Below, piece after piece: positions 663 to 6,322 of a stretch of 64,000 nt of DNA. Under the pieces are notes generated by a model, which did no database searches, had not been told where the DNA came from, and was given only the letters and a program-made list of their open reading frames with translations. The DNA lies in contig VAYS01000006.1 of assembly GCA_005883215.1 (NCBI GenBank), positions 1 through 64,000 on the forward strand, in the 5' to 3' direction. How positions within the stretch are numbered: position 1 is the stretch's first letter; the number at the start of each line of letters is the position of its first letter. Source of the DNA: Actinomycetota bacterium (GTDB taxonomy: Bacteria; Actinomycetota; Thermoleophilia; Solirubrobacterales; Solirubrobacteraceae). The translations under genes and the position numbers were made by a program.

Positions 663-719
663 GACCTTGGCGCCGACCTGGGCTGGTGGAGGGGCTCGGG
701 CGGCGCTACCGTAGACCTC

Positions 720-1056
720 GCAGGCTAGGCAGCCGCGGGGATCGTCAGCGGCGATCCCCGAGGAAAGTCCGGACATCAGAAGGCGAGGTGGTCGGGGAAT
801 CCGACCCGGGGAAACCCGCGGGAAAGTGCCACAGAAAAGACACCGCCGACGTTCGCGGCCACACGTGAGTCGCGGACGGGTAAGGGTGAAATGGTGCGGT
901 AAGAGCGCACCGGCGTCGCGGCGACGCGGCGGCCTGGCAAACCCCACCTGATGCAAGGCCAAGCAGGACCGCCACGAGGTTGCCCGCCCAGGTCCAGGTA
1001 GGCCGCTCAGATGGATGGCTGCCCACGACAGAATCCGGCTTATCGGCCTGCTAAGG
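720..1056 (+). ncRNA. rnpB: RNase P RNA (bacterial type A)
   Basis: This is the catalytic RNA that trims tRNA 5-prime leaders. Two hallmark conserved blocks are visible: GAGGAAAGTCCGGAC at about 761-775 (CR I region) and GACAGAATCCGGCTTATCGG at about 1027-1046 (CR V region). The outer P1 helix is formed by sequences around 724-735 and 1045-1054. The spacing of about 335 nt is normal. A plausible -10 (TACCGT, 707-712) places the transcription start near 720. The ends are estimated to within about 10 nt. Confidence 0.95.
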
Positions 1057-1083
1057 GAAAGCCCCGCTCCGGCGGGGCTTTCC
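1056..1083 (+). terminator. intrinsic terminator-like hairpin after rnpB
   Basis: A perfect 12-bp inverted repeat (GGAAAGCCCCGC / GCGGGGCTTTCC) closes on a TCCG tetraloop. It begins just after the P1 3-prime strand of rnpB. There is only a short T run (TTT within the stem arm), as is common in high-GC actinobacteria. Confidence 0.85.
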
Positions 1084-2435: not shown

Positions 2436-2927
2436 ATGCTGGCCGGAGGATTCCTGGCGTTCTGGGCGATCGTCGGGCTGACGATCTTCTTCGTGGCGAT
2501 GCGCGGAGGGCCGCGCGGAGCCCGCGCGACGCTGTACCTCGACTCGCGCCCCGCCCGGCGGGTGCTAGGGGTGCTCTTCGTCGTGCTCTACGTGGGGTTC
2601 GGCGTGGCCGTGCCCACCCTGGTCTTGGCGGCGAACGGCAACCACCGAGCCAAGGTCGCCACCGGAGGAGTGCAGCTCACCGCCGCCGAGGCCCACGGCC
2701 GCTCGCTGTTTGCCGCCAAGTGCGCGACGTGCCACACCCTGGCGGCGGCCAATGCGGTGGGTCGCGTCGGCCCGAACCTCGATCTCCTGCGCCCCCCGGC
2801 GGTGATCGTCCAGAGCGCGATCTCCCAGGGGCGGGCCCGAGGCAACGGGCAGATGCCGGCGATGCTCTACGACGGCAAGGACGCCCAGGACGTGGTCGCC
2901 TTCGTGACCGCGGTCGCCGGGCACTGA
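2436..2927 (+). CDS. membrane-anchored c-type cytochrome
   Basis: A 163-residue protein with two predicted membrane segments (about residues 4-22 and 43-65), then a periplasm-facing mono-heme cytochrome c domain. The heme-binding motif CATCH is at residues 96-100, and Met140 or Met143 in GQMPAM is the likely sixth iron ligand. The domain resembles class I cytochromes that shuttle electrons in the respiratory chain. No oxidase or reductase subunit lies next to it, so its partner is unknown. The gene is monocistronic and divergent from the methyltransferase. Confidence 0.88.
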   Translation: MLAGGFLAFWAIVGLTIFFVAMRGGPRGARATLYLDSRPARRVLGVLFVVLYVGFGVAVPTLVLAANGNHRAKVATGGVQLTAAEAHGRSLFAAKCATCHTLAAANAVGRVGPNLDLLRPPAVIVQSAISQGRARGNGQMPAMLYDGKDAQDVVAFVTAVAGH

Positions 2928-3087
2928 CCCCGCTCATAGGCGCCAATCAAGAGCCGAGACGCCAGTAAAAGACGGGGCGTGCGCAGGGGTGGGGGAGGGC
3001 GTTGGTGTAACCGCCGTCCGGCTGCGCTGTCATAAACAACGGGCGCCGTGAAGACATTTTTGCCCACTGTTACGATGGGCCCCCAGA

Positions 3088-3203
3088 CCGCCGAATCTCC
3101 TCAGGCGAGGAGAGCGGGGGACCCAAGGCCGCAGGGGCGAATCGCTTCACGCGTAGCGCACTCTTTCGCGCGAGCCCGTCAGCTAACCCCGTAAGCCCAG
3201 AAA
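3088..3203 (+). promoter_or_regulatory. cyclic di-AMP riboswitch (ydaO-yuaA type)
   Basis: The 5-prime leader of the gene at 3212 contains the conserved blocks of the ydaO-yuaA class: GGGGGACCCA around 3116-3125, GGGGCGAATC around 3134-3143 and CCGTCAGCTAACCCCGTAAGC around 3176-3196. They occur in the expected order with a variable hairpin between. These switches bind c-di-AMP and usually turn expression off. A -10-like TACGAT at 3071-3076 would start the transcript just before the aptamer. The 3-prime part lies within 20 nt of the ATG, leaving little room for a separate expression platform. Confidence 0.9.
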
Positions 3204-3211
3204 GAGAAGTC

Positions 3212-3709
3212 ATGCCGCAGGCTGCCGCCACCTCATGGTGGACCGAAGTCGAACATCTGCGAGAGCCGCTCGAGCGTCGGCGCCGGGAGGCTGAGCACGG
3301 TCGCGCCGGGGGCGGGGGTGCCGAGGCGACAGACCGACCTCCGGGCCCGCGGATCCTGCCTCTCGCCGGGCCCTCCGGTCCCGAGAAATCGCGGCGAGAC
3401 GGCGTGGCGAGCAGATCGCCGGCAGTGACCGAGGGGGATTCGCCGCGCGCCGGGCGCTTCCGCGGCCGCGAGCACGAGGAGGCCGTGGCCCAGGCCGCGC
3501 GCCAGCCTGCGCGGCGCACGGTCCGGATTCGCGGCCAGGCGATCCCCGTGGTCGCCGCGCCCCGCCTGGTCGAGGTCGAGCGGCGCCGGCCCCCGCGCCG
3601 GGCCACCCCCGAGAAGGTCAAGCGCGCCCCGGATCACGTCGCGCTCTGGGCATTCGTGCTCGGCGTGCTGCTGATCGCGGTGGCCATCCTCACCGCCCAC
3701 GCCGGCTGA
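3212..3709 (+). CDS. unknown protein with C-terminal membrane anchor, under a c-di-AMP riboswitch
   Basis: I do not recognise this 165-residue protein. Residues 1-100 are Arg/Pro/Gly/Glu-rich and look disordered. Residues 101-125 contain a short beta-like stretch (RTVRIRGQAIPVVAAPRLVE). A single hydrophobic helix (about 142-162, LWAFVLGVLLIAVAILTA) ends the protein. This is a tail-anchored topology with a mainly cytoplasmic N-terminus. Known c-di-AMP switches of this class control cell-wall hydrolases and osmolyte or potassium transport; none of those motifs is present here. The ATG at 3212 has an AAGAGAAG ribosome-binding site. Confidence 0.7.
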   Translation: MPQAAATSWWTEVEHLREPLERRRREAEHGRAGGGGAEATDRPPGPRILPLAGPSGPEKSRRDGVASRSPAVTEGDSPRAGRFRGREHEEAVAQAARQPARRTVRIRGQAIPVVAAPRLVEVERRRPPRRATPEKVKRAPDHVALWAFVLGVLLIAVAILTAHAG

Positions 3710-3808
3710 GCACCCCCGCGCCGAGCGGGCCCGCGCCCGCCGGCCCCCGTGCGTCGCGCCCCCGGCCCGGCCCCCGTCCGGGCGGCTCGCGCCAGCCGCC
3801 CGCGGCGA

Positions 3809-3831
3809 CTACAATTACTATTTGTAAGTAG
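3809..3831 (+). promoter_or_regulatory. AT-rich dyad, candidate HxlR operator, with -10-like element
   Basis: In the 235-bp GC-rich gap before the AhpD-like gene there is one conspicuous AT-rich patch. TTAC-TATTT-GTAA is a perfect inverted repeat at 3815-3827, flanked by CTAC and GTAG. This resembles the TTAC/GTAA-type operators of HxlR/YodB-family regulators, and an HxlR gene is encoded in the same operon (4510). TACAAT at 3810-3815 would serve as a -10 overlapped by the operator. I see nothing else in 3710-3944. Confidence 0.5.
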
Positions 3832-3944
3832 CCCGCAGGATGTAAAGGAGCGGGTTGGGGCGCGCCGGTTGCCGGCGGTTGAGACGGTCGACGGTGATCC
3901 GATTCGCGCCGCGGCGCGTCAGAAGGCGGTAGGAGTTGAAGCAG

Positions 3945-4508
3945 ATGAACCCCCGCATCAGCCGATTTCAGATCCACGACGAGCTCACCGCGCCCGAGGG
4001 CTCGGTGCCCGTGCTGCGGGGGGCGCTATCGGCGGCCGGGCAGCTGCCCAACTTCCTCGGGGTCCTGGCCGGGTCTCCCGCTGCTCTGCGCGCCTACGCG
4101 CGGTTTCGCTCCGAGCTTCGCAACGGCCACCTCGACGCGGGCACCCAGGCGCGGATCGCCATCGCGGTCGCCCAGCACCACGGTTCAGAGCCCGGCCTGA
4201 GGCTGCACACGCGGGCGGCGCGCTCGGCGGGGATGGGCCTCGACGAGGTGGCCCGGGCGCGGGAGTTTGCCTCGGGCGATCGGCGCCAGGACGCCCTGCT
4301 GCGCTATCTGGGCGCGCTGCTGGATGGTCCCGACGGCCCCCCCGTGCACCTGCACGAGGAGGCCCGGGAGGCGGGCTGGAGCGACGAGCAGCTGCTCGAG
4401 GCGATCGCCTACGTGGCGCTCGAGACGTTCACCGCCCTGGTCAACGTCGCCGGAGAGGTGCCGGTGGACGGCTCGGAGGAGGAGTCGCGCAGCCTGCGCG
4501 CGGCCTGA
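3945..4508 (+). CDS. carboxymuconolactone decarboxylase/AhpD-like family protein lacking the CxxC pair
   Basis: A 187-residue all-helical protein of the AhpD/CMD superfamily. The characteristic core (QARIAIAVAQHHGSEPGLRLHTRAARSAG, then the second helical half LEAIAYVALETFTALVNVAGE) is clear. The usual redox CxxC is replaced by HHGSEPG, so a thiol-disulphide mechanism like that of AhpD is not expected. Start: ATG 3945 with AGGAG ending 9 nt upstream; the TTG at 3936 is an alternative. It is followed one base later by an HxlR regulator. The pairing of a CMD protein with HxlR suggests an electrophile or quinone response, which is inference. Confidence 0.8.
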   Translation: MNPRISRFQIHDELTAPEGSVPVLRGALSAAGQLPNFLGVLAGSPAALRAYARFRSELRNGHLDAGTQARIAIAVAQHHGSEPGLRLHTRAARSAGMGLDEVARAREFASGDRRQDALLRYLGALLDGPDGPPVHLHEEAREAGWSDEQLLEAIAYVALETFTALVNVAGEVPVDGSEEESRSLRAA

Positions 4509-4509
4509 C

Positions 4510-4944
4510 GTGCCGACGCCCGATTCCAGCCCCCTCGGCGGGCGGGGGCGTCCTGGCGCCTGCTGTCCCCTCTATCACGACGCCGTGGAGTTGATCGGCC
4601 GTCGCTGGACGGGGGCGATCCTCGACGTCCTGCTCCAGCGGCCCTCCCTGCGCTTCTCGGAGATCGCCCAAGCCGTGCCGGCGCTCTCGGACCGGCTCTT
4701 GTCCGAGCGCATGAAGGAACTCGAGGGGCGCGGGGTGGTACTGCGCACCGTCGAGCCGGGGCGGCCCCCCCGGGTGAGCTACTCGCTGACCGAGATGGGG
4801 CGGGCGCTGAGCCCCGCTCTGGCCGAGGTCAAGGCGTGGGCCCAGCACTGGCTGGCCGCCGATCGAGGCTCGGATCACGTGGCGCACGCCGGGTCCAGTC
4901 GGCGCGGGGCGCCCGCGCGGGCATCGAATAACCTGGCGCGCTGA
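4510..4944 (+). CDS. HxlR-family winged-helix transcriptional regulator
   Basis: A 144-residue MarR/HxlR-type regulator. The family signature is clear: a conserved Cys just before the first helix (CCPLYHDAVELIGRRW), then the winged helix (LRFSEIAQAVPALSDRLLSERMKELEGRGVV) and a beta wing (RVSYSLTEMG). Cys near the N-terminus is the redox or electrophile sensor in relatives such as YodB and HypR. Start: GTG 4510, one base after the stop of the AhpD-like gene, so the pair forms an operon. The dyad at 3815-3827 is a candidate autoregulatory site. The C-terminal 25 residues are low-complexity. Confidence 0.88.
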   Translation: MPTPDSSPLGGRGRPGACCPLYHDAVELIGRRWTGAILDVLLQRPSLRFSEIAQAVPALSDRLLSERMKELEGRGVVLRTVEPGRPPRVSYSLTEMGRALSPALAEVKAWAQHWLAADRGSDHVAHAGSSRRGAPARASNNLAR

Positions 4945-4972
4945 TACGGCGGCGCCGCCGCCGCTTGAGCAA

Positions 4973-6322
4973 ATGGCCAGCACCGTGTCCGAGATCCCCA
5001 GGAGCGCCGACGACGTCAAGGCTCTGGTCCAGGAGCGCAACATCCGCTTCATTCGCTTCTGGTTTACCGACATCCTCGGCCAGCTGAAGTCGTTCTCGAT
5101 CGGCCGCGAGGAGCTCGAGGATGCCTTCGAGGGCGGCATGGGCTTTGACGGGTCCTCGATCACCGGCTTTAACGCCATCGAGGAGTCGGACATGATCGCC
5201 ATGCCCGACCCCGCCACGTTTGCCGTCCTGCCCTGGCGTCCCGAGGAGCAGGGAGTGGGCCGCATGTTCTGCGACATCCTCACCCCCGAGCGCACCCCGT
5301 ATGAGGGCGATCCCCGCCACGTGCTGCGCCGGGCGCTGGAGCGAGCCTCGGCGATGGGCTTTGACACGTTCAACGTCGGGCCCGAGCTCGAGTACTTCCT
5401 GTTTCGCGACAGCCGCTCGACGACGCCGCTGGACGAGGGCGGCTACTTCGACCTGACCACCCTGGACGCCGGCTCGGACGTGCGCCGCGAGACCGTGCTC
5501 GCACTCGAGCAGCTGGGGATCCACGTGGAGTACACCCACCACGAGGTCGGGCCCTCGCAGCACGAGATCGACATGCGCTACGCCAACGCGCTGAAGATGG
5601 CCGACGACTGCATGACCTACCGCATCACGGTCAAGGAGTACGCGCTCAAGTACGGGTGGCACGCCACCTTCATGCCCAAGCCCCTGTTCGGCGAGAACGG
5701 ATCGGGCATGCACACCCACCAGTCGCTGTTTGCCGACGGCACCAACGCCTTCTTTGACGCCGACGACCCCTACTTCCTCTCCGAGGTGGGCAAGGGCTTC
5801 ATCGCCGGGCAGCTCAAGCACGCACGGGAGATCTGCTCGCTGTTCGCCCAATGGGTCAACAGCTACAAGCGTCTGGTGCCCGGGTTCGAGGCCCCGGTGT
5901 ACGTGGCCTGGTCGCGCCGCAACCGTTCGGCGCTGGTGCGGGTCCCGCTCTATCACCCGGGCAAGGAGCGGACCACGCGCATGGAGCTGCGCTGCCCGGA
6001 CCCGGCGTGCAACCCCTACCTGACCTTTGCCGCGCTGCTGCAGGCCGGCTTGGAGGGCATCGAGAAGGGGTACGAGCTGCCCGAGCCGATGGAGAAGAAC
6101 CTGTATCACCTGGCGCCCGACGAACGCCGCCGCCTGGGGATCGAGCAGCTCCCCGACACGCTCGGCGAGGCGATCGAGTTGACCGCCAACTCCGAGCTCG
6201 TGCTTCGCACCCTGGGCGAGCACATGTTCAACCGCTACGTCGAGATCAAGCGCCAGGAGTGGGAGGACTACCGGGTCCAGGTCACCCGCTGGGAGCTCGA
6301 CCGCTACCTGCCGATCCTCTAG
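4973..6322 (+). CDS. glnA: type I glutamine synthetase (short, GSI-alpha-like)
   Basis: ATP-dependent amidation of glutamate to glutamine, cytosolic dodecamer. At 449 residues it lacks the roughly 25-residue insertion of GSI-beta enzymes and is the size of GSI-alpha or archaeal forms. The beta-grasp N-domain contains FDGSSITGF (about 58-66). The catalytic domain contains the metal ligands in GPELEYFLF and HHEVGPSQHEID, the ATP/ammonia site MHTHQS, and RNRSALVRVP. The region equivalent to the adenylylation loop reads KNLYHLAPDERR. A Tyr is present, but the short type usually is controlled by feedback, not by adenylylation. Start ATG 4973. No nitrogen-regulatory gene adjoins it. Confidence 0.95.
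   Translation: MASTVSEIPRSADDVKALVQERNIRFIRFWFTDILGQLKSFSIGREELEDAFEGGMGFDGSSITGFNAIEESDMIAMPDPATFAVLPWRPEEQGVGRMFCDILTPERTPYEGDPRHVLRRALERASAMGFDTFNVGPELEYFLFRDSRSTTPLDEGGYFDLTTLDAGSDVRRETVLALEQLGIHVEYTHHEVGPSQHEIDMRYANALKMADDCMTYRITVKEYALKYGWHATFMPKPLFGENGSGMHTHQSLFADGTNAFFDADDPYFLSEVGKGFIAGQLKHAREICSLFAQWVNSYKRLVPGFEAPVYVAWSRRNRSALVRVPLYHPGKERTTRMELRCPDPACNPYLTFAALLQAGLEGIEKGYELPEPMEKNLYHLAPDERRRLGIEQLPDTLGEAIELTANSELVLRTLGEHMFNRYVEIKRQEWEDYRVQVTRWELDRYLPIL

What the first reader, a model, noticed from the sequence alone, without database searches (positions are those of the whole stretch)
3088..3709. c-di-AMP riboswitch controlling an unknown tail-anchored protein
The ydaO-yuaA conserved blocks are clear, yet the only gene directly downstream is a 165-residue disordered, basic protein with a C-terminal membrane helix. 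Known actinobacterial members of this riboswitch class control Rpf-like and NlpC/P60 cell-wall enzymes or transporters. This may be a new c-di-AMP effector, perhaps linked to wall or turgor control.
Basis: partly seen in the sequence, partly recalled or inferred. Interest (0 to 1): 0.65.

Follow-up and report, generated by a model that had tools for sequence, protein, structure and literature searches.

The report
c-di-AMP switch on wall-protein membrane stub
An RNA switch that senses the bacterial messenger c-di-AMP sits directly in front of a small membrane protein that looks like a cell-wall protein (RlpA type) without its wall-facing part, and this switch-gene pair is conserved across one order of soil actinobacteria, so it is a real but modest extension of a known wall-control circuit.

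Summary
RF00379 matches 3079-3211 at 71 bits (cut-off 38), and a 165-codon ORF starts at 3212. The pairing recurs: the protein family is single-copy and found in 78 of 120 good genomes of the order (Solirubrobacterales among named records), in the order cytochrome c - [riboswitch - protein] - (CMD - HxlR) - glnA. A riboswitch lies directly upstream in 46 of 58 testable loci. Substitution ratios (dN/dS 0.14-0.55) show a real protein.

The protein is not an orphan tail-anchored protein by origin. At the same locus some relatives encode the same N-tail and membrane helix fused to PG_binding_1 and an RlpA-like DPBB domain, or a plain secreted RlpA-like protein. So the window protein is the cytoplasmic tail plus signal anchor without the wall domains; repeated loss is likely, gain not excluded.

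The aptamer's pseudoknot strand GAAAGAG (3200-3206) is also the gene's ribosome-binding site, 5 nt before ATG, and covaries with loop CUCUUUC (3161-3167) across 134 aptamers. I infer translational OFF control by c-di-AMP. The genome's other eight riboswitches precede exported wall or secreted proteins. What the stub does is unknown; a membrane adaptor for wall enzymes is my best guess.

The parts
3071..3076 (+). putative -10 element TACGAT; a start near 3082-3084 would place the aptamer at the 5' end of the mRNA
   Evidence: read from sequence; not found by the sigma-70 consensus scan; inference
3079..3211 (+). c-di-AMP riboswitch aptamer, RF00379 (ydaO/yuaA)
   Evidence: cmscan 71.0 bits, gathering 38, model 1-134
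3161..3167 (+). pseudoknot 5' strand CUCUUUC (anti-SD loop inside the aptamer)
   Evidence: 7 Watson-Crick pairs with 3200-3206; covariation in 134 aptamers
3200..3206 (+). pseudoknot 3' strand GAAAGAG, which is also the purine-rich ribosome-binding site, 5 nt before the ATG
   Evidence: sequence; covariation
3212..3709 (+). 165-aa single-pass membrane protein: stub (N-tail plus signal anchor) of an RlpA-like wall protein
   Evidence: ORF; family alignment A1; fused homologues at the same locus
3233..3307 (+). codons 8-32: N-terminal helix WWTEVEHLRE..RRR, motif shared with fused RlpA-type homologues
3512..3535 (+). codons 101-108: conserved RRTVRIRG motif
   Evidence: R102, T103, I106, G108 at least 90% conserved
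3635..3697 (+). codons 142-162: membrane helix, N-in/C-out expected
   Evidence: extracellular domains follow this helix in fused homologues
2436..2927 (+). c-type cytochrome gene, conserved upstream neighbour
   Evidence: PF13442; synteny
3948..4508 (+). carboxymuconolactone decarboxylase family gene, frequent downstream neighbour
   Evidence: PF02627; synteny
4510..4944 (+). HxlR-family regulator gene
   Evidence: PF01638; synteny
4973..6322 (+). glutamine synthetase gene, conserved downstream neighbour

Best explanation
A c-di-AMP riboswitch controls translation of a small type II membrane protein. Shown by computation: the aptamer; its conserved pairing with this gene; a pseudoknot whose 3' strand is the gene's ribosome-binding site; and homology of the protein's N-tail and membrane helix to RlpA-like wall proteins at the same locus. 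Inferred: when c-di-AMP is high, the folded aptamer and its pseudoknot bury the ribosome-binding site and the gene is off; when c-di-AMP falls, the site is free and the protein is made together with the wall hydrolases under the other copies of the switch. The protein sits in the membrane with its long disordered tail in the cytoplasm and lacks the peptidoglycan-binding and DPBB domains. It most likely acts as a membrane adaptor or regulator of wall enzymes or of the division/elongation machinery through its WWxDVEHLRE helix and RRTVxIxG motif. That last step is a guess.
For: RF00379 71 bits. The genome has a DAC-domain cyclase gene, so it can make c-di-AMP. Same pairing in relatives. Family single-copy and essentially order-restricted. 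Locus synteny. Fused or plain RlpA-like proteins at the same locus. In a clade of genus g13, one stub (G033) nests inside fused relatives on the GS tree. dN/dS 0.14-0.55. Pseudoknot complementarity higher than all 5000 permutations, also in the 53 variant loops; the sequence of the solved ydaO aptamer printed in PMC5393176 has the same loop/tail complementarity. PMC9960051: a C. glutamicum nlpC switch most likely acts on translation, and the authors propose a pseudoknot with the RBS. The other eight RF00379 hits of this genome precede exported wall or secreted proteins.
Against: No experiment. In Streptomyces rpfA the switch is reported to act on transcription (PMC10117811), so a translational mechanism here is not certain. 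Twelve of 58 loci keep the protein without a detected riboswitch, so c-di-AMP control is not essential to the gene. The function of the stub rests on conserved short motifs only. The permutation test does not remove relatedness among aptamers. Direction of change (loss versus gain of the wall domains) is not settled: the DPBB tree is unresolved and the GS tree backbone is weak.
Confidence: 0.62

Rival explanations
1. The stub is a decaying remnant: the wall domains were lost and the remaining ORF has no function, kept only by inertia.
For: Wall domains absent in most relatives; N-tail length varies widely (proteins of 76 to about 280 aa); riboswitch not detected at 12 of 58 loci.
Against: dN/dS 0.14-0.55 in 16 close pairs, lower in the motif-to-membrane part in most of them; single copy in 78 of 120 genomes; conserved motifs across families f1, f2 and f4.
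Confidence: 0.15
2. The ORF is a leader; the real target of the switch is the downstream CMD-HxlR-glnA group, linking c-di-AMP to glutamine/glutamate osmolyte supply.
For: Same strand, conserved order, glnA nearby in nearly all loci; no terminator-like site found between the ORF and glnA.
Against: In G035 and G034 the riboswitch and stub stay together away from glnA. A perfect palindromic operator-like site lies between the ORF and CMD, suggesting separate control. CMD and HxlR are missing at several loci. The ribosome-binding site controlled is that of the stub.
Confidence: 0.12
3. The switch acts by transcription attenuation, as reported for Streptomyces rpfA, and the ribosome-binding-site overlap is incidental.
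For: Streptomyces rpfA precedent (PMC10117811).
Against: The aptamer model ends at the base before the ATG and no terminator-like site was found in 2900-5000; start codons lie a median 11 nt after the pseudoknot strand over 132 loci.
Confidence: 0.2
4. The protein is a new c-di-AMP receptor (effector in the strict sense).
For: None direct; only the genetic linkage to the riboswitch.
Against: No known c-di-AMP-binding domain found by Pfam or NCBIfam; mostly disordered.
Confidence: 0.03

Closest known systems
c-di-AMP riboswitch RF00379 (ydaO/yuaA), as at Corynebacterium glutamicum nlpC and Streptomyces rpfA
   Same: Same aptamer family, same pseudoknot arrangement, wall-related targets; the nlpC switch is reported as most likely translational with a proposed pseudoknot to the RBS (PMC9960051)
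   Different: The target here has no enzyme or wall-binding domain; the pseudoknot 3' strand is the RBS itself, with only 5 nt to the ATG
RlpA-like DPBB proteins (PF03330) with PG_binding_1 (PF01471)
   Same: Same locus, same riboswitch, same N-tail and membrane helix in fused homologues (G012, G016, G027, other g13 genomes; shorter N-tail in G044, G050)
   Different: Window protein lacks both PG_binding_1 and DPBB
Tail-anchored membrane proteins
   Same: Cytoplasmic N-tail and one C-terminal helix with about 3 residues after it
   Different: Origin looks like a signal anchor of an exported protein; several family members have up to 40 residues after the helix, and fused members export two domains

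Membership tests
RF00379 c-di-AMP riboswitch | Covariance-model score above gathering | tested here: met
   71.0 against 38 bits, full length
RF00379 c-di-AMP riboswitch | Loop/3'-tail pseudoknot complementarity, as read from the sequence of the solved ydaO aptamer | tested here: met
   CUCUUUC/GAAAGAG, covarying; aptamer sequence in PMC5393176
RF00379 c-di-AMP riboswitch | Binds c-di-AMP and changes expression | not testable with these tools
   needs in-line probing and reporters; a DAC gene is present
RlpA-like DPBB wall proteins | DPBB domain (PF03330) | tested here: not met
   no Pfam hit in the window protein; no DPBB hit at this locus in G000
RlpA-like DPBB wall proteins | Orthologous position and shared N-tail/membrane helix with fused members | tested here: met
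Tail-anchored proteins | Single C-terminal membrane helix with short tail, N-terminus in the cytoplasm | tested here: met
   topology by sequence only: basic residues before the helix and fused homologues; insertion route not tested
c-di-AMP effector proteins | Known c-di-AMP-binding domain | tested here: not met
   no such domain found

The most novel reading that the evidence does not exclude
A widespread, undescribed family of c-di-AMP-controlled membrane adaptors arose by repeated loss of the wall domains from a riboswitch-controlled RlpA-like protein, keeping only a cytoplasmic tail and membrane anchor that couple the wall-enzyme programme to the cytoplasmic machinery.
Probability: 0.3. 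Interest if true: 0.65.

Novelty: new variant of a known kind. Interest (0 to 1): 0.45.

Why it matters
The paper passages I read on actinobacterial c-di-AMP riboswitches name wall hydrolases as targets. A conserved target with no wall domain points to a regulatory or scaffold arm of the same programme, and it can be tested in cultivable species (Conexibacter arvalis DSM 23288; Solirubrobacter deserti and Solirubrobacter phytolaccae also carry a riboswitch next to the family gene). The pseudoknot strand doubling as the ribosome-binding site gives a simple, testable mechanism for translational c-di-AMP switches, which so far rest on one published reporter case that I could find.

Tried and rejected
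One Pfam call failed because of wrong HxlR coordinates, redone. A regular expression for the aptamer core missed divergent aptamers; replaced by a covariance model of my own and Rfam. The DPBB-domain tree, meant to show loss versus gain of the wall domain, was unresolved; the GS tree gave one nested stub but a weak backbone. Search for DPBB in G000 showed none at this locus, but three elsewhere, two of them behind RF00379 hits. Literature searches for c-di-AMP riboswitch with Thermoleophilia found nothing, and with RlpA found one paper that looked unrelated by title and abstract and was not opened. The key 2013 riboswitch paper is not in the library.

Full report
Observation. Rfam's RF00379 model matches window 3079-3211 on the + strand over its full length at 71.0 bits, against a gathering score of 38. 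The next base is the ATG of a 165-codon ORF, 3212-3709. The ORF has no Pfam match above cut-off and no NCBIfam match. The genome also carries a diadenylate cyclase domain gene (PF02457).

The pairing is conserved. The window protein finds homologues in relatives, many directly behind an RF00379 aptamer. Twenty-five of them align (A1) with a shared plan: N-terminal WWxDVEHLRE..RRR (in a subset), a variable disordered linker, RRTVxIxG, a basic stretch, RPDRxAxWAVxLGxxLILVA. A profile search finds the family in 78 of 120 genomes of the order at least 90% complete, almost always once per genome, and only within the order in a sample of 296 genomes of the phylum. In 299 genomes of the class, two weak matches fall outside the order. 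Named records place it in Solirubrobacterales, including Conexibacter arvalis DSM 23288 and Solirubrobacter species.

Locus. In the 59 family loci that I fetched, the usual order is cytochrome c - family gene - (CMD - HxlR) - glnA. A covariance model built from 25 aptamers of this group finds a riboswitch in 46 of the 58 loci that could be tested (one locus is cut by a contig end; a few loci were picked from riboswitch hits, a small bias). Rfam agrees for the ambiguous ones. In 12 loci the protein is kept without a detected switch.

What the protein is. At the same locus, genus g13 (G012, G226, G228, G242, G264, G295), G016, G027 (with a frameshift near its N-terminus), and G044 and G050 of family f3 encode the membrane helix followed by PG_binding_1 and an RlpA-like DPBB domain (PF03330; Pfam run on G012 and G044, the others by my DPBB profile and by eye); the g13 members, and G027 in its first frame, also carry the WW N-tail motif. 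Other f3 genomes (G047, G055, G057, G059) have a plain secreted RlpA-like protein behind the riboswitch and near glnA. The window protein therefore corresponds to the cytoplasmic tail plus signal anchor of such a protein. On a glutamine synthetase tree the fused state is scattered (at least 3 changes forced by well-supported branches) and one stub, G033, lies inside a fused clade (89/77 and 94/75 support). I read this as repeated loss of the wall domains, but the DPBB tree does not resolve it.

Is it a real protein? In 16 close pairs dN/dS is 0.14-0.55 for the whole ORF and lower from the RRTVxIxG motif to the membrane helix in most pairs. AlphaFold on the 25-row alignment gives helices 8-32 and 142-164 and a disordered middle (mean pLDDT 66). 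Topology N-in/C-out follows from the basic residues before the helix and from the wall-facing domains after it in fused members.

Mechanism. The aptamer loop CUCUUUC (3161-3167) pairs with GAAAGAG (3200-3206), 7 Watson-Crick pairs. Among 134 aptamers, own loop-tail complementarity exceeds all 5000 permutations of tails (16.5 against 15.1, sd 0.18). In the 53 with a variant loop it is 15.1 against 13.0, sd 0.33, again 0 of 5000. Examples of paired changes: CCCTTTC/GAAAGGG, CTTCTTC/GAAGAAG, CTCGTTC/GAACGAG, TCACTCG/CGAGTGA. Relatedness is not removed by this test. The same complementarity can be read in the sequence of the solved ydaO aptamer (PMC5393176). GAAAGAG is also the purine-rich ribosome-binding site, 5 nt before the ATG; over 132 loci the start codon lies a median 11 nt after the pseudoknot strand, and no terminator-like site was found nearby. 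The simplest mechanism is translational: c-di-AMP folds the aptamer, the pseudoknot holds the ribosome-binding site, and translation stops. C. glutamicum nlpC is the published precedent (PMC9960051); Streptomyces rpfA is reported as transcriptional (PMC10117811).

Regulon. The other eight RF00379 hits of the genome (six above cut-off, two below) precede a PG_binding_1 protein, two NlpC/P60-like proteins, a PG_binding_1 plus M23-like protein, two CAP proteins and two DPBB proteins (the second CAP and the two DPBB assignments rest on sequence motifs and my DPBB profile, and NlpC/P60 and M23 are below Pfam cut-offs). The window gene is the only one of the nine without a wall or secreted domain.

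Verdict. Ordinary riboswitch, conserved and so far undescribed target family (no Pfam or NCBIfam model found), derived from or related to an RlpA-like wall protein. Function of the stub is open.

Noticed in passing
window 3809-3831: Palindrome CTACAATTACTATTTGTAAGTAG between the family gene and the CMD-HxlR pair; TTACTATTTGTAAGTA occurs once in the window with no mismatch and looks (from memory) like the operator of Bacillus YodB/HxlR-type regulators. Degenerate copies in L116, L137, L153 and L158; the literature search for the sequence found nothing.
   Followed up: partly
G000:C32:40820-40942 and G000:C53:195607-195791 (L259, L260): Two RlpA-like DPBB genes elsewhere in the same genome sit behind RF00379 hits (44.6 and 27.6 bits), so RlpA-type proteins remain under the switch in this genome.
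   Followed up: partly
window 717-1058: RNase P RNA, class A, 228 bits, close upstream of this locus; also found near the homologous locus of G037 (L256).
   Followed up: no
L110, L119, L121, L127, L128, L132, L134, L139, L144, L145, L146, L149: Family gene kept in its usual place but with no detectable riboswitch.
   Followed up: partly
L099 (G035) and L117 (G034): Riboswitch and stub stay together although glnA lies elsewhere in the genome, an argument against glnA as the target.
   Followed up: yes
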